DNA from: Methylobacterium sp. Leaf99
Lineage (GTDB): Bacteria; Pseudomonadota; Alphaproteobacteria; Rhizobiales; Beijerinckiaceae
Assembly: GCF_001422375.1 (NCBI RefSeq)
Contig: NZ_LMMU01000007.1
Location: 474,184 to 538,183 of the forward strand
Reading direction: 5' to 3'
DNA: 64,000 bases
The notes under the pieces were generated by a model. The model ran no database searches. It was given only the letters and a program-made list of their open reading frames with translations, and was not told where the DNA came from. Below are positions 49,559 to 64,000 of the stretch, in pieces (within the stretch, counting starts at the first letter, position 1; each line of letters starts with the position of its first letter). Made by a program: the position numbers and the translations under genes.

Positions 49559-49633
<75 letters not shown>

Positions 49634-49750: not shown

Positions 49751-51547
49751 GTGGGGTCCATCGCCAATGTCGTCCTTCGGGGACGAATCTTCCATTTTCG
49801 GCGCCGTGTGCCGGACGGTCTCAGACCGACGCTGCGCCTGAAGGAACTGGTGCGCAGCCTTGAGACGACCGACCTTCGTGCTGCCAAGGCGAGATGTTGT
49901 CGGGTATACCTCGCCTCAGAAAGCCTGTTCACGGCCCTGTACGCGATGCCGATGCTGACCGACGACCAACTCGCCCGCCTCGTGCAGGACTTCTACGGAA
50001 CGATCCTCGACGGGGATGAACAGGGACGACTGACGTACGCAGCGATCCCGGCCGATATGCGGGAGCGGCGCGTCACCCAGTACGAGATGATGGCAGCGCA
50101 GGCACGCGACGCTCTCGCCTGCAACCGGCTGGAAGAGGCAGGGTTCGTCACCGTCGCGATGCTCCGCAAGCAAGGCATCGCTGCAGCCGATCTCGAGCCG
50201 CGTGCAGTCGCGAAGGCACGGCAGGCGATGCTGCGGGCCGGCATCGACGTCGCCGAGGCACTCAAGGCCCGTTACGAGGGTGACTTTAACTTCGAGCCCC
50301 GCGACCGCCTGCTCAAAATGCAGCTAGCGGCACTCCACGAGGCTCCGAAAGCCCCGCGCACGGAGAACACGGCACCCCACCCGGCCAAAAAGGAAGCGGT
50401 GCTGCCGCACGCCACCGAGCTTTTTTCGGCAGTCGCTGCCGCGTTCCGAAACACGCAGGCCGCCACCAACACCTGGGACAACCAGACCGCGTCGCAAGCA
50501 GGCGCAACCTTCCGCCTGTTCGTCGACACCTGCGGAGACCGCCCCCTCGCCGCCTACACCCGCAAGGACGCCGGCTACTTCCGCAGCCTCGTGGAACGGC
50601 TACCGAACGACTACGGCAAACATCCCCGCTACCGAAACCTCACGGTGGACGAGATCCTAGCTGCACACGAGGCGCTGCCCGACAAGCAGCGCACACAGCC
50701 GATCACGCAGCGGACCGTGAAGCGGCACTTCTCGGCCCTGTCGGCGCTCTGGACGGCCGCGGTCGCAAGAGACGAGGCGGCAGCGAACATCTTCCTGGGC
50801 TTCCGCTTCAGCAATACCCGTAAGGCGAGCGAGCAACGCGCCATGTGGGAGCGGGACGAGCTCGCCCGCCTCTTCGCAACACCAATCTGGACAGGCTGCG
50901 CCTCCCCCGGCCGGCGAACCACACCGGGAACCCTCATCCTACGCGACGAGAAATTCTGGCTACCCCTGATCGCCGTGTTCTCCGGCATGCGCCAGGAAGA
51001 GATCTGCCAGCTGCATGCCGAGGACATCCGACAGGACGAGGGCATCTGGTTCATCGACATCAACGACCGACCTCCGCGGAAGCTCAAGAACGCGACGGCG
51101 GTCCGGCGCGTACCGATCCACTCGCAGCTGATTCGCCTGGGCTTTCTCGCGCATGTCGACGCGCAGCGGCGCCGCCGGCAAGACCGCGTCTTCCCTCTGC
51201 TTGAACCCGGAGGGGCCGACGGTCGACTGGGCCACGCCTTCACCAAGTGGTTCACCCGCTACCGACGCGACGTGAAGCTCTACCGGCAAGGGCTCGACTT
51301 CCACTCGTTCCGGCACACGGCGACGACGCTGATGCACCAAGCCGGCACAGCGACCGCCGTCATCGACCACGTGACAGGACACGTCACGCCGGGCGAGACC
51401 GCGCGGTACACCAAGCGTTCTTCCTTATCCCAGCTGAAGGCAGCCATCGAGACGATTGTGATCGAGCTCGGCCTGGCCCATCTGCTGCCAGAGACCGGCA
51501 ACGGGTCGCGGTCCACCTCAAGCCGACCCTCCGCGGCAAAAGCCTAA
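49751..51547 (+). CDS. Tyrosine site-specific integrase
   Basis: A 598-residue tyrosine recombinase, expected to insert the element at the tRNA-Gln 3' end. The N-terminus (VVLRGRIFHFRRRVPDGLRPTL) resembles DUF6538 arm-type domains. A SAM-like core-binding region lies around residues 220-330. The catalytic set is visible: Arg in FSGMRQEEICQLH, HSFRHT, a late GHVTPGE and the nucleophile Tyr in ETARYTKR. Start GTG 49751. An insert between core motifs makes it longer than most integrases. No excisionase gene was recognised. Confidence 0.93.
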   Translation: MGSIANVVLRGRIFHFRRRVPDGLRPTLRLKELVRSLETTDLRAAKARCCRVYLASESLFTALYAMPMLTDDQLARLVQDFYGTILDGDEQGRLTYAAIPADMRERRVTQYEMMAAQARDALACNRLEEAGFVTVAMLRKQGIAAADLEPRAVAKARQAMLRAGIDVAEALKARYEGDFNFEPRDRLLKMQLAALHEAPKAPRTENTAPHPAKKEAVLPHATELFSAVAAAFRNTQAATNTWDNQTASQAGATFRLFVDTCGDRPLAAYTRKDAGYFRSLVERLPNDYGKHPRYRNLTVDEILAAHEALPDKQRTQPITQRTVKRHFSALSALWTAAVARDEAAANIFLGFRFSNTRKASEQRAMWERDELARLFATPIWTGCASPGRRTTPGTLILRDEKFWLPLIAVFSGMRQEEICQLHAEDIRQDEGIWFIDINDRPPRKLKNATAVRRVPIHSQLIRLGFLAHVDAQRRRRQDRVFPLLEPGGADGRLGHAFTKWFTRYRRDVKLYRQGLDFHSFRHTATTLMHQAGTATAVIDHVTGHVTPGETARYTKRSSLSQLKAAIETIVIELGLAHLLPETGNGSRSTSSRPSAAKA

Positions 51548-52263: not shown

Positions 52264-53367
52264 ATGTCGAATGATCTTTCCAGTCTCGCGTGGCAACCAC
52301 CTACCCCCGCACAGCCCACGGTCCTCGGTCGGCCACGCCGCTTTGAGGACGTGTCCGGTCAAGAGGACGCCGACAGAGACATCCAGGCTTTCCTCGAAGA
52401 CGCGCTCGACCCAGCTCGTCAGAAGCCGCGCTGCCGGACACTGCTTCTCAGCGGCGTCGCGGGGATCGGCAAGACGACGATCGCGCGCATCCTGGGGAAC
52501 ATCGCTCTGTGCTGGAATCCGACTGAAGGCCATCAAGCTTGTGGCACCTGCGCCATCTGCAAGGCCTTCCAGGAAAACCCTCCGCGCGGCATCGACGACT
52601 ACTTCGAGATCAGTGCAGCCGAATACTCCGGCGTCCACGCGATGTCGCACCTCGTGGCACTGATGCGCCGCGCGCCCCTAGGTCGCTTCAAGGTGGGCTT
52701 CGCAGACGAAGCGCATCGCGCTTCCCGCATGGGAAAAGACGCACTCCTGAAGGACCTCGAAGAGCCTTCCCCCTACGCAATCTACATCCTTGCCACCACA
52801 GAACCGGACAAGCTCGGCGCCGCCCTCCTATCGCGCTGCCACCACGTGCGTCTGCGGCCACCCTCTATGACGGACCGCCTGCACTTCCTCCGCCGGCGAT
52901 GCGAGGTTGGATGGGGCTTGCCCCCCGAGAATTACGAACCAGCGGCACTCGAGCGCCTCGCCGTCCGAGTCGGTGCCAACTACCGCGAACTCGCGGCGGC
53001 ACTCGACCGCTGTATCACCGCCGGCCCCCTGACGACCGACACGGTCGACCGCCTGTTCCCAGACCCGCTCGCCGCGTGCCTGAGTAGCGCCGAAGCCCTT
53101 CTCGACGACGATCTGTCCGGCGCCATCTCCGCCCTGGTGGAGGCGCCTGGTACCCCCGACGAAAAGCGGGCCGCGATGCAGAGCCTCCTATTGGGGCTCA
53201 GCCTCGCCTGCGTCCGAGGCGTCGTGACACCCTACGACCCGCTGAGCGACGTTCCTCTGGAGCGACGGCAGGCGTTGGTGGCGCGCTTCGACGCTCGACG
53301 CCCCCAGTCCGTGTCTCTCGCAACCTACCTAGAGGACTGTGCGCGATTCTGGGGGGCATCCCGGTGA
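52264..53367 (+). CDS. DnaX-like AAA+ clamp-loader ATPase on mobile element
   Basis: A 367-residue protein clearly homologous to the DNA polymerase III gamma/tau subunit. It has RPRRFEDVSGQE at the start, Walker A GVAGIGKTT (residues 64-72), zinc-binding Cys83, 93, 96 and 99 (DnaX-like spacing), Walker B-like FADEAH (146-151), LLKDLEEP, sensor 1 ILATTEPDKL and the arginine finger in SRC (190-192). After the AAA+ lid it ends without the tau C-terminal domains. Its end overlaps the next gene by 4 bp. Likely role: loading the clamp-like protein encoded two genes later. Confidence 0.9.
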   Translation: MSNDLSSLAWQPPTPAQPTVLGRPRRFEDVSGQEDADRDIQAFLEDALDPARQKPRCRTLLLSGVAGIGKTTIARILGNIALCWNPTEGHQACGTCAICKAFQENPPRGIDDYFEISAAEYSGVHAMSHLVALMRRAPLGRFKVGFADEAHRASRMGKDALLKDLEEPSPYAIYILATTEPDKLGAALLSRCHHVRLRPPSMTDRLHFLRRRCEVGWGLPPENYEPAALERLAVRVGANYRELAAALDRCITAGPLTTDTVDRLFPDPLAACLSSAEALLDDDLSGAISALVEAPGTPDEKRAAMQSLLLGLSLACVRGVVTPYDPLSDVPLERRQALVARFDARRPQSVSLATYLEDCARFWGASR

Positions 53368-54470
53368 CTCAGGACGAACTCATCCTCCGCATAACCGCTT
53401 TCTATGACCTACTCGGCGCGATACGCGACGGATCGGAGCAGATCGGGCCTTCTGCTAACCGTGATCCCCCGCCGAAGGCATCGCGTATCCTCCCCCGGTG
53501 TCGTCGCAGTCTCGCGGCGCACGAGCGCGCGAACGCACGCTCGCACGACGGACGGCGGCATCTGTATCTCAACGCTGCGCAAGCCCATGCCCTGTACCGA
53601 GCCGCCTCCTTTCTCGCGCAGGGAACCGGACGCCTGCTCAACGTCCGAGTGACGTTCGACCATGGGCTCGACAAGCAGGATGCAGGTGCCGACGCGAGTA
53701 AGGCCGTCACGGACTTCTGCCGTCGCGCTCGGGCTCTCCTCCACCGCCGGGGCCAGGACGACTTTCCGTTCCTCTCCGTTCATGTAGTGACCGCCGAAGG
53801 GCACTTCGTCACCGAACTCACCGCGCATGTCGCCCCAGACCAGCGCCTCGCCCGCTTCACGACATGGGCAGAGGAAGACTTTATGACGACCCGCCGCCGC
53901 ACCGCACCCAGGGTTCGAGTCGGAGCTTGCCGCGCAACAGCGCGGGCCGAGAGGGTCGCCTACCATGCCACGTCGCTCCGGCGGCTCCTGCGTGGCCTCG
54001 ATCCAAACATCTACGACTGGGACGAGCAGAATGTCCGGCAGCCGCTGATCGACCTACTCGGTGTGCCCGTGTCGGAGCGTCGGACGATCGGCACGATCGA
54101 CGCCGCGCAGCGCATCAGTACCTCGGACTCGCTCGCCCAAGGAGCAAGACGTACAGCGGAGGCGGATGGCATGGGCCTCCTCGACCCAATGCAAGACCGC
54201 GCTTGGTCCTGGCTCTTTTCCGGATGGGAACTCGACGAGTACCACGCCCGAACGGCGGAGCGCGTGGCACGCGTTGAGGCCCGCGCTCGCATAGACGCCC
54301 TGTACCCCGTTGAACCCAACACCCTCGTGTCCGCGCGCCGAGCCGCAGAATTGGCCGATCTTGAGGCCCGCTGCCGCTGGTCAGCTGAATACCGGCCCCG
54401 ATTCTGGGGCGGACGGCTGCAGCCGGCGATCGAACTACCCGCTCTTGACGACAGGAGCCCTGCACGATGA
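53364..54470 (+). CDS. Unknown protein coupled to clamp-loader gene; initiator-like features
   Basis: Not confidently recognised. The 368-residue protein starts at GTG 53364, overlapping the DnaX-like gene (GTGA). Residues 90-165 alternate strand and helix (LLNVRVTFDHGLDK ... FPFLSVHVVTAEGHFVTELTAHVAPDQRLARF), faintly like the catalytic fold of HUH replication initiators, and a later LLGVPVSERRTIGTIDAAQRIS resembles their C-terminal part. The His-hydrophobic-His metal motif is not intact, so an active nickase is doubtful. Alternatives: a delta-like clamp-loader partner or a novel protein. Operon position ties it to replication. Confidence 0.5.
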   Translation: MTQDELILRITAFYDLLGAIRDGSEQIGPSANRDPPPKASRILPRCRRSLAAHERANARSHDGRRHLYLNAAQAHALYRAASFLAQGTGRLLNVRVTFDHGLDKQDAGADASKAVTDFCRRARALLHRRGQDDFPFLSVHVVTAEGHFVTELTAHVAPDQRLARFTTWAEEDFMTTRRRTAPRVRVGACRATARAERVAYHATSLRRLLRGLDPNIYDWDEQNVRQPLIDLLGVPVSERRTIGTIDAAQRISTSDSLAQGARRTAEADGMGLLDPMQDRAWSWLFSGWELDEYHARTAERVARVEARARIDALYPVEPNTLVSARRAAELADLEARCRWSAEYRPRFWGGRLQPAIELPALDDRSPAR

Positions 54471-54492
54471 CTCTGCTGCATGGAGCAAGATC

Positions 54493-56208
54493 ATGACTGA
54501 CGCTGATCACTACACCACGGCAGCGGCGGTCCCAGTCGCCGCCTCCGCAACTAGTCCCACCCCGGTAGACATAGCACCTGTGCATCAGCCCGGGCCGTCA
54601 TTCGTACCCCTGCACGCTTCCGAATCGCTAGGATCGGGTAGGTCGGTAGAGCTTAGCCCTACCTCTAACGCGATCGACGCACCGACCGATCAATCGGCAC
54701 CAGCCCTCCCCACCAGGGAAGGTTTACGAGGCGGACGAGACGGCGGTCCGCGAGAGGCCGTACTGCTGGCTGGAGAACCGGGGGAAGCGATCCACTTCCA
54801 AACCTACTACAGCGACTTGCTGCTACTGCGCGATATCACTGCCACGATGCTAGCTACACCGATTGCAGCCGAACCGGGCGCGAATACCGTGGGCGACACA
54901 TTACCATGCGAAGTCGCGCCGGACGGGCTGCGCGTCACGTTCTGCAACGGTTCCATCAGCTGCGAGCTTCGAGTTCCATACACCCTAGGCACGTTGTCGA
55001 GCGGCAATGGGCGTTTTCAAATCCCTTCGCAGATCCTTCGACTGGCAGCACTGCAGGTTGTCAAGAACAAACCGAAGACAAAAACGGCTCTCGCACGACT
55101 TCAAGCAACAAGCCGTAGTCTTGCGCCGCGCGCCATCTATCAGGGTGTCCCGGACGAACCAGCACACTGGACATTCCTTCCGCGGACATCGGACGGCAAG
55201 CTACTGTATGACGGCGCGAAGCTTAATTTTTCTGCTTCTGCTGATACGAGCACTCCGCTGGAAAAAGATCCCGGACTGAGTGACCCAGTCCAGATCTTCC
55301 CTGATCGGATCCGCACCGCCCTGCTCGCCACCAAGCCTGCGGCAGCTACGAAGATCGACGCTCTGCCCAAGCTAAGCCAAGTCGCGATCGAAGATGGGGT
55401 CGGCTGCGCGTCTAACGAACGAATGTACGCCTACCACAGCGACATTGCCCTCGCCGGACTATCCTTCCGCGTTGCAGCGACAGACATCTCAGTGCTCACC
55501 TCGCTCATGCGCCATTTGGACCGAACCGCAACGACGCTCCGCACGGCGGGCCGGATGTGCGTGATCCAGGACGCGCGGCTCACCATCCGCTTCACGCAGC
55601 CCGTCGACACCCTCCCCGTAATCAATCTCCGCTCGTCTTTGCAGCCGACGCTGGCAATGCAGTGCGAGCACAAGGAGCTCATAGAGTTAGTTAATAAAGC
55701 CTTCCTCACCGCTCGAACGGATCCGGACGCCCAGAGGCGCCTTCAGCTTCATCTCCGTGTCGCCCTCATCGACGGTGAGATCGCTCTCACGGCCGATGCG
55801 ACGTGGCGTCATCCCAAGAGTGGTATGGATCGATTCAGGGGTAACCTTCGCAGTATCATGATAGAGCGTGAGCAAGCCCGCAGTCTCTGCGAGCGCCTGA
55901 GCCCACCCCCCTCGCCAACACTCACGTCCGACCGCAAGCATACCGAAGAGATCCTTGCGCGGCACGTGGCGCCATCAGCAATCGAAATCGGCCGCTATGT
56001 TGTGTCTGATCTCCTACGCGCAATACGGCCGCTACGCAGCGCCCTGCTACGTCTCGAGTTTATCGACGATAGAGCCCTCATCATCACGGAGACGACGGCG
56101 GAGCACAGCACGGACTACGTCATGACGTCCAAGACGCAAGAAGACACTTACGGAATGCCGCAACGCCGATCCAAACGCTGGGACGCCCCGTCGCGGCTCC
56201 GCGCCTAA
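54493..56208 (+). CDS. Sliding-clamp (DnaN)-like protein with disordered N-terminal extension
   Basis: A 571-residue protein whose residues about 100-550 fit the three-domain order of the polymerase III beta clamp. Domain I: CEVAPDGLRVTF ... RFQIPSQILRLA. Domain II: FPDRIRTALLATK ... VAIEDGVGCASNERMYAY ... VLTSLMRHL. Domain III: EHKELIELVNKAF ... IEIGRYVVSDLLRAI ... TDYVMTSK, aligning with E. coli MEIGFNVSYVLDVLNAL ... AAYVVMPM. The clamp-terminal MPMRL is replaced and a basic tail follows. Residues 1-95 are Ala/Pro/Ser-rich. Start ATG 54493 has GGAGCAAGA upstream, 22 bp after the previous gene. Call rests on alignment by eye. Confidence 0.72.
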   Translation: MTDADHYTTAAAVPVAASATSPTPVDIAPVHQPGPSFVPLHASESLGSGRSVELSPTSNAIDAPTDQSAPALPTREGLRGGRDGGPREAVLLAGEPGEAIHFQTYYSDLLLLRDITATMLATPIAAEPGANTVGDTLPCEVAPDGLRVTFCNGSISCELRVPYTLGTLSSGNGRFQIPSQILRLAALQVVKNKPKTKTALARLQATSRSLAPRAIYQGVPDEPAHWTFLPRTSDGKLLYDGAKLNFSASADTSTPLEKDPGLSDPVQIFPDRIRTALLATKPAAATKIDALPKLSQVAIEDGVGCASNERMYAYHSDIALAGLSFRVAATDISVLTSLMRHLDRTATTLRTAGRMCVIQDARLTIRFTQPVDTLPVINLRSSLQPTLAMQCEHKELIELVNKAFLTARTDPDAQRRLQLHLRVALIDGEIALTADATWRHPKSGMDRFRGNLRSIMIEREQARSLCERLSPPPSPTLTSDRKHTEEILARHVAPSAIEIGRYVVSDLLRAIRPLRSALLRLEFIDDRALIITETTAEHSTDYVMTSKTQEDTYGMPQRRSKRWDAPSRLRA

Positions 56209-60104: not shown

Positions 60105-61470
60105 GGTCGTGTCCCAGGCGGTGGTGTAGCTGAGGGGTGGTCATCGGCGGTTGCCGGGTAGGGTTGGGTTGCGACAGTCAACCCCGAACCTGAGAGACCC
60201 CCGATGACCGACGAGATCATGGCCCTGCGCGGGCTGATGGAGAAGAGCGCCGACGCCGATTTGCTGCGCGAGATGATCGGCTTTGCGGCCGAGCGATTGA
60301 TGGAACTGGAGGTCGGCGGCCTGACCGGCGCGGCTCATGGCGAGAAGAGCGCCGAGCGGCTGGTCCAGCGCAACGGCTACCGTGACCGAGACTGGCAGAC
60401 GCGGGCCGGCACGGTCGAGTTGCGCATCCCGAAGCTACGCAAGGGCAGCTACTTCCCGGGCTTCCTGGAGCCACGCCGCATGGCCGAGAAGGCGCTCACG
60501 GCAGTGATCCAGGAGGCCTACATCCAGGGTATCTCGACCCGCTCGGTCGATAACCTCGTGCAAGCCATGGGCGGCACGGGCGTGTCGAAGAGCCAAGTCT
60601 CGCGGCTCTGCCAGGAAATCGACGAGCGAGTCGGCGCGTTCCTCGACCGTCCCATCGAGGGCGAGTGGCCGTATCTTTGGATCGACGCGACCTACGTGAA
60701 GATCAGGAGCGAGGGCCGCATCGTCTCGGTCGCCGTCATTGTGGCGGTCGGCGTCAACAGCGACGGCCGGCGCGAGGTGTTGGGCATGGACGTCGGGCCC
60801 TCCGAGGCCGAGACGTTCTGGACGGCGTTCCTGCGCAAGCTCGCCCGGCGTGGTTTGCGAGGGGTCAAGCTCGTGATCTCGGATGCGCACGCGGGCATCA
60901 AGGCCTCCGTGGCCAAGGTCATGAACGCGACCTGGCAACGCTGCCGCGTCCACTTCATGAGGAACGTGCTCGCCCATGCCGGCCGCAGCGGGCGGCGCGT
61001 CGTCTCCGCCTTCATCGCCACCGCTTTCGCCCAGGATGATGCCGAGGCGGCCCGTCAGCAGTGGCGGCGGGTGGCCGACCAACTCCGCCCCAGAGTGCCC
61101 AAGCTCGCCGCTCTGATGGACGCCGCCGAGCCCGACGTGCTGGCCTACATGGGCTTTCCGGCAGCACACCGGGTCAAGCTGCACTCGACCAATCCGCTGG
61201 AGCGCCTCAATGGCGAGATCAAGCGCCGGACCGAGGTGGTCGGCATCTTCCCCAACGAGGCTGCCGTCACCCGTCTCGTCGGTGCGATCCTGCTCGAACA
61301 GAATGACGAATGGGCCGTCCAGCGCTCCCGCTACATGACGCTGGAAAGCATCGCCCCAATCGGCGATGATCCCCTCGTCAGCCTGCCCACCTTGGCAGCC
61401 TGATCCGCCCGGCCCAAGCCGGCGATCGTGGTGGCTCTCAGCGAGCTACACCACGCCTAGGGACGCGACC
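60105..61470 (+). mobile_element. IS256-family insertion sequence, intact
   Basis: A 1366-bp element. Terminal inverted repeats of 27 bp (60105-60131 and 61444-61470) match at 22 positions, with GGTCG at the outer end and TGGTGTAGCT at the inner end. A perfect 9-bp direct repeat CGAGGGCCT flanks it (60096-60104 and 61471-61479). One full-length transposase lies inside. Intact ends and duplication indicate a fairly recent insertion. Confidence 0.93.
60204..61403 (+). CDS. IS256-family transposase
   Basis: A 399-residue DDE (mutator-type) transposase. Catalytic residues are visible in [10 protein letters not shown] (Asp), [12 protein letters not shown] (Asp) and [22 protein letters not shown] (Glu). 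The CRVHFMRN segment between the second Asp and the Glu is typical of the family. ATG 60204 is preceded by GAGAG. The frame is complete, so the element is potentially active. Confidence 0.97.
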
Positions 61471-62113: not shown

Positions 62114-64000
62114 GTGAGTAGAGACGAGTTCTCCGAAAAGACCAAGCTCCAGGTCGCAAAGGCGACTGGCTTTCTTTGTTCATTTCCGGGGTGCCGGGTC
62201 ATCACCGTAGGCGCGACCGAAGACGGTCAAGGTATCATCAATATCGGCACGGCTGCTCACATCTGCGCTGCCGCCAGCGGAGGTCCTCGTTACGACGTTA
62301 AAATGTCGCCGGACGAGCGCTCAGCTGCCAGCAATGCGATCTGGCTTTGCCGTGACCACGGCAAGGCGATCGACTCCGACGTGAAGGCTTTCCCCACCGG
62401 CCTGTTGCGGGAATGGAAGCGGCAAGCGGAACAGGAAGCCTGGCGTCAGGTCACCCGCTCTGGGGCTGCGCAATCGCCGAGGCCGCCAGCAGCACCCTTG
62501 TTTTCGCGGATAAGAACCGCTGCCGCAGAGAACCTCAAGAACTATTGCGCGACCGACAAATGGCCCGCTACTCGGGTTGCTCTGATGGTCAAGGTGGAGG
62601 GCCTCCCTGAGCCGCTAACGACAACGGCGCTCGCAGATGCCGGTACCGCTCTTCAGGACTTGGTTCTCGTCGCTCCGCCCGGCATGGGCAAGACAACAAC
62701 GATCTTTCAAATTGCCGAAGGGGTGCTTGCAAACGGGAACGGCATTCCGCTGATTGTCCACCTCGGCGACTGGGCTACCGGGAATGCAACGGTGCTGGGG
62801 TCGATCCTCCGGCGAGCTGCATTTCGCGGCATTTCCGAGGATGAGATTCGGGAGGTCGCTCGTCAGCCCGGCGTTGTCCTTCTTCTCGACGGTTGGAACG
62901 AGTTGGACCTTGGGGCTTCAGCACGCGTACGCGTTGAGATTGAAAACCTTAAAGCCGAATTGCCCCAGCTTGGCCTCATTGTTTCGACCCGCAGGCAGGC
63001 CCTCGACGTTCCCTTTCGAGGGGCCCACCTCGAATTACAGCCACTCAATGAAGAACAGCAAATGCAGATCGCCACGGATATGCGCGGCGAGGCAGGTGCC
63101 GAGCTTGTGGACCATGCGTGGCGCACTCCGGGGGTGCGCGAGCTTGTTTCTATACCCCTCTATCTGACTGCCCTTCTCTCTCTCCCTGAGGGTGTGCCAT
63201 TCCCGACGACGAAGGAGGAAGTGCTACGCCATTTCGTGGGAGCCCATGAAAAAGTTCCCAGAAACGCTGAGGCCTTGCGAGGCGTCGCAGACGGGTTGCA
63301 ACGCAAGTACCTCGACGGACTCGCCGTATTCGCTATAAGAACAGCCAATACGACCATAACCGAGGGCAACGCTCAGGTTTCCGTTTCGGGTACGGCCACC
63401 CTGCTTGTGGAGAACGGCCTCATCACGATCAGGCCTAAACCGAACGCCATTCTGGATGTTCTTGTGGGCAACCACCTGCTCACGCGGGAGCGGGACGCCG
63501 GGTTCTCGTTCCAGCACCAGCAGTTGCAGGAGTGGTACGCCTCCCACAGCGTGGAGGGCCGGGTCTTGGCTGAGCTTGACGACCCGAAAGCGCGCGAGAC
63601 GCTCAAGGCCGAAATCTTCGACATGCCTGTTTGGGAAGAATCCATCCTATTCGCGGTGGAGCGTCTTGCACGCGGAAGCGCCCTCCAGAACGTGGCCTGC
63701 GGCAAGGCTATTCTGGCCGCCTTCGAGGCCGATCCTATGCTCGCCGCGGAGATGATTGCCCACGCGACGGACGAGGTATGGGTGCAGATCGGTCCGACCA
63801 TTCAAGTCCTGGTGGGCCAATGGCACGCGACCGGAAAGGTCGACCGGGCTTTTCGGTTCATGCTGACCTCGGGCCGTTCCGAATTCCTGCCATGGATCTG
63901 GCCGCTCGTTACGGACCGCAACCACCAGGTCAGCCTGAAGGCCCTGCGCAGTTGCGAGAGGTTCCGACCCTCGATCCTCGGCAACGACGTCGAAGCAAAA
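62114..64000 (+). CDS. STAND/NACHT-type NTPase with N-terminal HNH-like domain (partial, runs off end)
   Basis: An open frame of 629 codons with no stop before the window end. Residues 20-90 form an HNH-type zinc-bound fold: Cys22-x4-Cys27, AHI with His49, GGPRYD, Asn74 and WLC-RDH with Cys79/His82. A NACHT-like NTPase follows: Walker A APPGMGKTTT (Gly190-Thr195), Walker B VLLLDGWNELD (Asp259, Glu263) and a sensor-like LIVSTRRQ. The rest is helical, as in STAND sensor arms. The start is GTG 62114, the first after a stop. This nuclease-NTPase-sensor layout resembles Avs-type anti-phage proteins. Defence is inference. Confidence 0.8.
   Translation, partial: MSRDEFSEKTKLQVAKATGFLCSFPGCRVITVGATEDGQGIINIGTAAHICAAASGGPRYDVKMSPDERSAASNAIWLCRDHGKAIDSDVKAFPTGLLREWKRQAEQEAWRQVTRSGAAQSPRPPAAPLFSRIRTAAAENLKNYCATDKWPATRVALMVKVEGLPEPLTTTALADAGTALQDLVLVAPPGMGKTTTIFQIAEGVLANGNGIPLIVHLGDWATGNATVLGSILRRAAFRGISEDEIREVARQPGVVLLLDGWNELDLGASARVRVEIENLKAELPQLGLIVSTRRQALDVPFRGAHLELQPLNEEQQMQIATDMRGEAGAELVDHAWRTPGVRELVSIPLYLTALLSLPEGVPFPTTKEEVLRHFVGAHEKVPRNAEALRGVADGLQRKYLDGLAVFAIRTANTTITEGNAQVSVSGTATLLVENGLITIRPKPNAILDVLVGNHLLTRERDAGFSFQHQQLQEWYASHSVEGRVLAELDDPKARETLKAEIFDMPVWEESILFAVERLARGSALQNVACGKAILAAFEADPMLAAEMIAHATDEVWVQIGPTIQVLVGQWHATGKVDRAFRFMLTSGRSEFLPWIWPLVTDRNHQVSLKALRSCERFRPSILGNDVEAK

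What the first reader, a model, noticed from the sequence alone, without database searches (positions are those of the whole stretch)
62114..64000. Candidate HNH-STAND NTPase defence gene
An HNH-like zinc fold fused to a NACHT-like NTPase and a long helical region is the effector-NTPase-sensor logic of Avs and other bacterial STAND defence proteins. His49, Asn74 and His82 could form an active HNH site. It lies on a mobile element. The frame is unbroken over 629 codons to the window end.
Basis: partly seen in the sequence, partly recalled or inferred. Interest (0 to 1): 0.78.

Follow-up and report, generated by a model that had tools for sequence, protein, structure and literature searches.

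The report
HNH-NACHT bacterial immune receptor candidate
A complete, rare, mobile bacterial gene built like an animal NLR immune receptor, with a DNA-cutting-type domain, an ATP-driven switch and a long sensing tail; it probably defends the cell against phages or plasmids, but one residue usually needed for cutting is missing and defence has not been tested.

Summary
The frame is real and complete: 1443 codons, with its stop near window position 66445. Residues 1-118 are a Cap5-type zinc HNH domain (solved HNH proteins, E 7e-11). About 126-463 is a NACHT module (NLRC4 Z 18.0, NOD2, NLRP3; Avs4 lower). A long helical region follows and ends in NCAB2, 'NACHT C-terminal Alpha/Beta 2' (E 5e-29). 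Homologues are patchy in Proteobacteria and several are on plasmids; QatA, GajB and a candidate defence gene lie near three of them. Best reading: a bacterial NLR-related (bNACHT-like) receptor, probably anti-phage or anti-plasmid, with a DNase effector. Defence is inferred, not shown. Cutting is therefore uncertain. No Avs model was among the PADLOC matches. Two relatives carry the same NACHT-NCAB2 body with a different N-terminus, which suggests effector exchange.

The parts
62114..64000 (+). first 629 codons of the 1443-codon HNH-NACHT-helical repeat-NCAB2 gene (stop near 66445 in window numbering)
62114..62467 (+). HNH domain, residues 1-118; probable zinc ligands C22, C27, C79, H82; H49, N74, R59, D87 kept; G83 at the usual third HNH position
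   Evidence: AlphaFold did not fold this part
62489..63502 (+). NACHT module, residues about 126-463
   Evidence: Foldseek and VIA-align: NLRC4, NOD2, NLRP3
62672..62698 (+). Walker A, residues 187-195 (GxGKT)
   Evidence: invariant G190, G192, K193 in A1
62873..62902 (+). Walker B, residues 254-263 (ending DGWNE)
   Evidence: invariant D259-E263 in A1
63509..63535 (+). conserved FQH..Q.EW motif after the NACHT core (winged-helix region by recall)
   Evidence: invariant F466, Q467, H468, E473, W474 in A1
60204..61403 (+). IS256-type (Mutator) transposase directly upstream
   Evidence: PF00872 E 1.6e-125
49751..51547 (+). tyrosine recombinase at the left edge of the region
   Evidence: PF00589 E 5.2e-14, DUF6538
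49559..49633 (+). tRNA-Gln at which homology to relatives stops
   Evidence: ARAGORN; homology ends at its last base in 4 of 4 relatives compared

Best explanation
A single-gene bacterial immune receptor of the NLR-related (bNACHT) kind. Shown by computation: the gene is complete; it has an HNH-type domain, a NACHT module with conserved Walker motifs, a helical tail and NCAB2; its relatives are patchy and often on plasmids. Inferred: at rest the NACHT module is closed; the tail senses a product of an incoming phage or plasmid, or a host protein that it disturbs; NTP-dependent assembly brings HNH domains together, much as cyclic nucleotide does in Cap5; DNA is then cut and the cell is arrested or dies. 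The cutting step is the least certain.
For: HNH part matches solved HNH/Cap5-type proteins and PADLOC effectors of CBASS and PDC-M68A. NACHT fold: NLRC4 Z 18.0 over 287 residues, rmsd 4.9; Avs4 E 1.2e-7. NCAB2 E 5e-29. Walker motifs, H49, N74 and D87 invariant. Patchy distribution and plasmid copies. QatA in L026 and GajB in L031 and PDC-S06 in L103; 118 neighbour ORFs matched 66 PADLOC families at E up to 1e-20 against 1 family for 99 control ORFs. A comparable protein, bNACHT25 (PD-(D/E)XK-NACHT), degrades DNA and protects (PMC12169576, passages). Other N-termini on the same body.
Against: No functional test. Gly at the third HNH position, not His in 18 of 19 NACHT-linked copies. Pfam's NACHT model did not match the query itself at E up to 1, and in relatives stays below its cut-off. 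The control regions are arbitrary stretches, not islands or plasmids, so mobile context alone could explain part of the defence neighbourhood; 5 of 39 proteins scanned singly gave a match. The HNH part of the model has pLDDT under 50.
Confidence: 0.65

Rival explanations
1. The same kind of immune receptor, but the HNH-like domain does not cut: it binds DNA or pairs with another HNH domain, and acts by clamping DNA or by recruiting a partner nuclease.
For: Third HNH position lost in 18 of 19 NACHT-linked copies. A PD-(D/E)XK gene follows in the own genome (L002:11315-12448, E 3.6e-100).
Against: H49, R59, N74 and D87 are invariant in all 54 HNH domains compared, hard to explain for a dead enzyme; 8ysq, filed as a SAVED protein, also has Gly there, though I do not know whether it cuts; one NACHT-linked copy, L048, keeps His; the PD-(D/E)XK neighbour is not a neighbour shared by the family.
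Confidence: 0.22
2. The target is plasmids or other mobile elements, or competition between elements, and not phages.
For: Several copies lie on plasmids and the own copy on an integrase-bearing region.
Against: Defence genes of any kind are often on such elements; validated relatives act on phages (PMC12169576, passages).
Confidence: 0.09
3. A STAND regulator without a role in defence, for example of transcription or metabolism.
For: STAND proteins of that sort exist (general knowledge, no call). Most singly scanned neighbours had no defence match.
Against: Patchy distribution, an effector-type N-terminus with defence-library matches, and no regulatory or metabolic family above its cut-off.
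Confidence: 0.04

Closest known systems
Bacterial NLR-related (bNACHT) proteins, e.g. bNACHT25 and bNACHT32
   Same: effector, central NACHT module, C-terminal sensor in one protein; DNase-type effector (PMC12169576, passages)
   Different: PD-(D/E)XK effector and NCH1 tail there; HNH-type effector with Gly83 and NCAB2 tail here
Cap5 (CBASS HNH-SAVED effector)
   Same: homologous HNH domain with zinc site (PMC8568899, passages)
   Different: no SAVED match here; the switch is NACHT, not a cyclic-nucleotide sensor; the AsCap5/LlCap5 entries 7rwm and 7rwk read His-His where this protein reads His82-Gly83 (the naming of those two entries as Cap5 is partly recalled)
Avs (AVAST) STAND proteins, Avs4
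   Same: effector-STAND-helical sensor build; Avs4 is among the fold matches (rank 20; Z 11.7 but rmsd 19.6 over 340 residues)
   Different: mammalian NLR NACHT modules match better and no Avs model is among the PADLOC matches
PADLOC candidate PDC-M68A
   Same: best PADLOC match of the HNH part, E 3.9e-25
   Different: only positions 1-114 of 253 match; no NACHT part in the match
DS-8 (metallophosphatase-NACHT)
   Same: N-terminal effector with NACHT, protective, both parts needed (PMC13092281, passages)
   Different: another effector fold

Membership tests
Bacterial NACHT (bNACHT / NLR-related) protein | NACHT-type fold of the NTPase | tested here: met
   NLRC4 Z 18.0, NOD2 17.0, NLRP3 16.5; same families lead Foldseek
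Bacterial NACHT (bNACHT / NLR-related) protein | match to Pfam NACHT above its cut-off | tested here: inconclusive
   no match for the query at E up to 1; below cut-off in L038, L039, L040
Bacterial NACHT (bNACHT / NLR-related) protein | conserved Walker A and NACHT-like Walker B | tested here: met
   invariant in A1
Bacterial NACHT (bNACHT / NLR-related) protein | NACHT-associated C-terminal domain | tested here: met
   NCAB2 101 bits against a cut-off of 27
Bacterial NACHT (bNACHT / NLR-related) protein | protection against phage | not testable with these tools
   needs an experiment
Avs (AVAST) types | match to an Avs model | tested here: inconclusive
   none among 14 PADLOC families at E up to 1; that the library holds Avs models is recalled, not checked
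Cap5 / CBASS | SAVED domain | tested here: not met
   PADLOC and PDB matches to SAVED proteins cover the HNH part only; no SAVED family in Pfam
Cap5 / CBASS | adjacent cyclic-nucleotide synthase | not tested
   the immediate neighbours scanned are a transposase and a PD-(D/E)XK gene; no search for a synthase was run
Canonical HNH nuclease | H, N, H residues all present | tested here: not met
   H49 and N74 present, third position Gly83; D87 kept, so activity is not excluded

The most novel reading that the evidence does not exclude
A distinct class of NLR-like immune proteins in which a Cap5-type HNH domain was recruited onto an NTPase and remodelled: the third HNH residue is lost in 18 of 19 copies, so DNA is either cut by an unusual metal site that forms only in the assembled oligomer (H49, N74, R59, D87), or bound without cutting. 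The same loss recurs in a few HNH proteins with ABC/SMC-type ATPase parts (Ala in L058, Glu in L010 and L022), which would make it a mark of ATPase-gated as against nucleotide-gated HNH effectors.
Probability: 0.25. Interest if true: 0.6.

Novelty: new variant of a known kind. Interest (0 to 1): 0.42.

Why it matters
If it protects, it adds an HNH-type effector with a non-standard active site to the bacterial relatives of animal NLRs, and gives a clean test of whether one HNH module can be driven either by cyclic nucleotides (Cap5) or by an NTPase switch. The exchange of N-termini on one NACHT-NCAB2 body would let the sensor and the effector be studied apart. As it stands it is a well-supported candidate within a known class, not a new class.

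Tried and rejected
Right end of the island: the own genome holds one copy of the tRNA-Gln 3' end, the tRNA itself, with up to 2 mismatches, and L002 none with up to 3; flank searches in 21 genomes and a comparison with 4 relatives up to contig position 589999 did not place it. Only the left edge is shown.

A conserved operon partner: the all-against-all comparison of neighbours (which left out pairs of long proteins from the listing) showed no neighbour shared across the loci. The 1272/1326-residue upstream gene of L026 and L041 is 89% identical, so it counts as one case.

Other N-termini of L039 and L040: no recognised domain.

Fold of the HNH part: pLDDT under 50 for residues 1-102; nothing rests on it. 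The helical tail matched eukaryotic HEAT-type proteins at low TM-score (0.13-0.29 of the query in the 50 rows shown): a common arrangement, not kinship.

Metabolic or replication ATPases: FlhF and Rho matches are far below their cut-offs; ORC, RuvB and clamp-loader folds rank below the NLRs.

AbiE, PDC-M21 and PDC-S15 matches could not be placed on particular loci.

Literature: the papers PMC10294775 (Kibby et al. 2023), PMC11564622 (Bechon et al. 2024) and PMC10028730 (Gao et al. 2022) are not held, so I cannot say that HNH-NACHT proteins are undescribed. Paper searches listed none whose title or shown text names this combination. Passages only were seen of PMC8195603, PMC13092281, PMC12169576 (plus part of its reference list), PMC8568899, PMC12804361, PMC13253105, PMC10952713, PMC7159879 and PMC10853773. 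PMC8195603 does report HNH among the variable N-terminal effectors of other bacterial conflict proteins. PMC12839542 was seen as a listing only.

Full report
Observation. The open frame at 62114-64000 is as described. The window lies on contig 7 of a 4.65 Mb genome in 14 contigs. It behaves as a gene: none of 1000 shuffles kept the frame open, and the third codon position is far less conserved than the first two against the Rhodobacteraceae homologue (41% against 72 and 78%).

Domains. Pfam gives one clear domain, NCAB2 at residues 1353-1432 (E 5e-29), and HEAT repeats below the cut-off. PADLOC matches lie within residues 1-120: PDC-M68A 3.9e-25, CBASS endonuclease effectors 5.4e-17, SAVED-HNH 5.6e-16. 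PDB sequences agree: 9om4 'HNH endonuclease' and the SAVED proteins 8ysq, 7rwm and 7rwk. Cap5 is a DNA-degrading HNH-SAVED protein whose HNH domain has a zinc finger (PMC8568899, passages). The N-terminal 562 residues were modelled (mean pLDDT 73; the HNH part under 50). The best fold matches are NLRC4, NOD2, NLRP3 and NAIP5, with Avs4 at rank 20; by VIA-align NLRC4 has Z 18.0, rmsd 4.9 over 287 residues, model range 125-456. The C-terminal 964 residues of the 59% identical L003 homologue model as helices with a short alpha/beta end (mean pLDDT 76).

Relatives. The genome-contig scan, which reaches close relatives, gave 4 full-length loci, 52-59% identical: one Rhodobacteraceae, two Halomonas, one gamma symbiont. 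Plasmids: 157 records match, 8 of them over at least 80% of the protein; in the rows shown below these, matches shrink to parts, mostly the HNH end. Phage records: 5, none over 80%. IMG/VR: 4 loci; L051 has the same flanking proteins as L003 at 100% identity. Genome samples, in which only a few candidates per genome were scored: 10 of 385 in the class match, the own genome and G323 over the full length; 6 of 99 in the genus, the own genome alone over the full length; 32 of 297 in the order, with own, G1142 and G1258 over the full length. NCAB2 above its cut-off: 5 of 398 in the phylum sample and 3 of 298 in the family sample, own genome included in both; 0 of 14 control genomes. The family member G1062 has a contig of the same length as the Methylocystis sp. 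MJC1 plasmid and the same protein, so these count once. The patchiness fits horizontal movement.

Effector exchange. L040 and L039 align from query residues 121 and 165 onward and carry NCAB2, but their N-termini lack the HNH residues and match no recognised domain. This looks like modular effector exchange, on two cases.

Active site. Among 54 distinct HNH domains in the fetched loci (19 NACHT-linked, query included, and 35 others), C22, C27, H49, R59, N74, C79 and D87 are invariant. Position 82 is His or Cys (16/3 and 25/10), as expected of a zinc ligand. Position 83 is G 10, A 7, S 1, H 1 in the NACHT-linked set, and H 29, A 4, E 2 in the others. The residue after this ligand is the usual third HNH position (family knowledge, recalled). 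The rows are not independent, since several NACHT-linked copies are close relatives. Against an inactive enzyme: all the other residues are kept, and 8ysq also has Gly there. Of the 6 others without His, L058, L010 and L022 carry ABC/SMC/AAA_15-type matches, weak and, but for ABC_tran in L010, below their cut-offs.

Mobility. A tRNA-Gln at 49559-49633 is followed at 49751 by a tyrosine recombinase. In 4 of 4 relatives compared, homology next to this site stops at the last base of the tRNA. An IS256-type transposase lies directly upstream of the gene, and a PD-(D/E)XK gene and DUF2958 downstream. The right end was not found.

Neighbourhood. In the Marinovum plasmid a QatA gene (E 1.7e-267) lies downstream and in the Sinorhizobium plasmid a GajB gene (E 2.9e-184) upstream; a PDC-S06 gene (E 1.5e-245) lies near the G1258 copy. 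Of 120 ORFs of at least 200 codons within 7.5 kb of 17 loci, 118 were scanned (two L002 ORFs were dropped, an efflux-pump gene and a reverse-strand ORF): 66 PADLOC families at E up to 1e-20, 25 shown, among them Qat A-D, GajA, GajB, AbiEi, AbiEii, PDC-S06, PDC-M21 and PDC-S15. As a control, 99 of 200 ORFs from 17 arbitrary regions of seven of the genomes gave one family, mad3, in 2 ORFs; mad3 also rang in 3 case ORFs and is discounted. Limits: ORFs were called mechanically, many families overlap on one gene, loci are partly related, and the control does not match for plasmids and islands. Of 39 proteins scanned singly, at various thresholds, 5 matched: QatA, GajB, TniQ, PDC-S06 and a mad3-like one. 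In the own genome the downstream PD-(D/E)XK gene had no PADLOC match.

Mechanism. The best reading is sensor-switch-effector immunity, like bNACHT25, whose PD-(D/E)XK domain degrades DNA on infection (PMC12169576, passages). Shown: domain content, conservation, patchiness. Inferred: sensing by the tail, NTP-driven assembly, DNA damage, cell arrest. The nuclease step is in doubt at residue 83.

Place among known things. It works like bNACHT and Avs proteins; by fold and build it belongs with bacterial NACHT proteins; it matched no Avs model and is not Cap5 (no SAVED). I found no paper that names the HNH-NACHT-NCAB2 combination, but the key paper on bNACHT clades could not be read, so novelty is claimed only for the variant.

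Noticed in passing
window 52264-56208: Next to the integrase lies a clamp-loader-like ATPase (DNA_pol3_delta2, E 4.5e-16) followed by two long ORFs without a Pfam match; a replication-type gene set on an integrated element.
   Followed up: partly
window 60204-61403; L028:8639-9511: The IS256-type transposase just upstream of the gene is 83% identical over 271 residues to a 290-residue ORF just upstream of the homologue in the Methylocystis plasmid, though the two HNH-NACHT proteins are only 49% identical.
   Followed up: no
L026:6181-9999; L041:14945-18922: In two loci a second large P-loop protein (1272/1326 residues, 89% identical, weak nSTAND match) overlaps the start of the HNH-NACHT gene: a possible two-receptor operon.
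   Followed up: partly
L002:11315-12448 and L002:12492-12914: A PDDEXK_13 nuclease gene (E 3.6e-100) and a DUF2958 gene lie downstream of the HNH-NACHT gene in the own genome.
   Followed up: partly
L027, L031, L042, L046: Several relatives are broken: split into two frames (L027, L031), interrupted by an annotated IS3-type transposase (L046) or reduced to fragments (L042); the gene may be costly to keep.
   Followed up: no
hits H42-H44: The HNH domain alone also matches genes annotated as 'lysogenic conversion protein' in P2-EC46 and a Yersinia phage.
   Followed up: no
L010, L022, L058: HNH domains of the same family in front of weak ABC/SMC/AAA_15-type matches also lack the third HNH residue (Glu, Glu, Ala).
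   Followed up: partly
L038:2944-4656: A TniQ-type gene (PADLOC TniQ E 5e-20) lies just upstream of the G699 homologue, which suggests carriage by a Tn7-like element.
   Followed up: no
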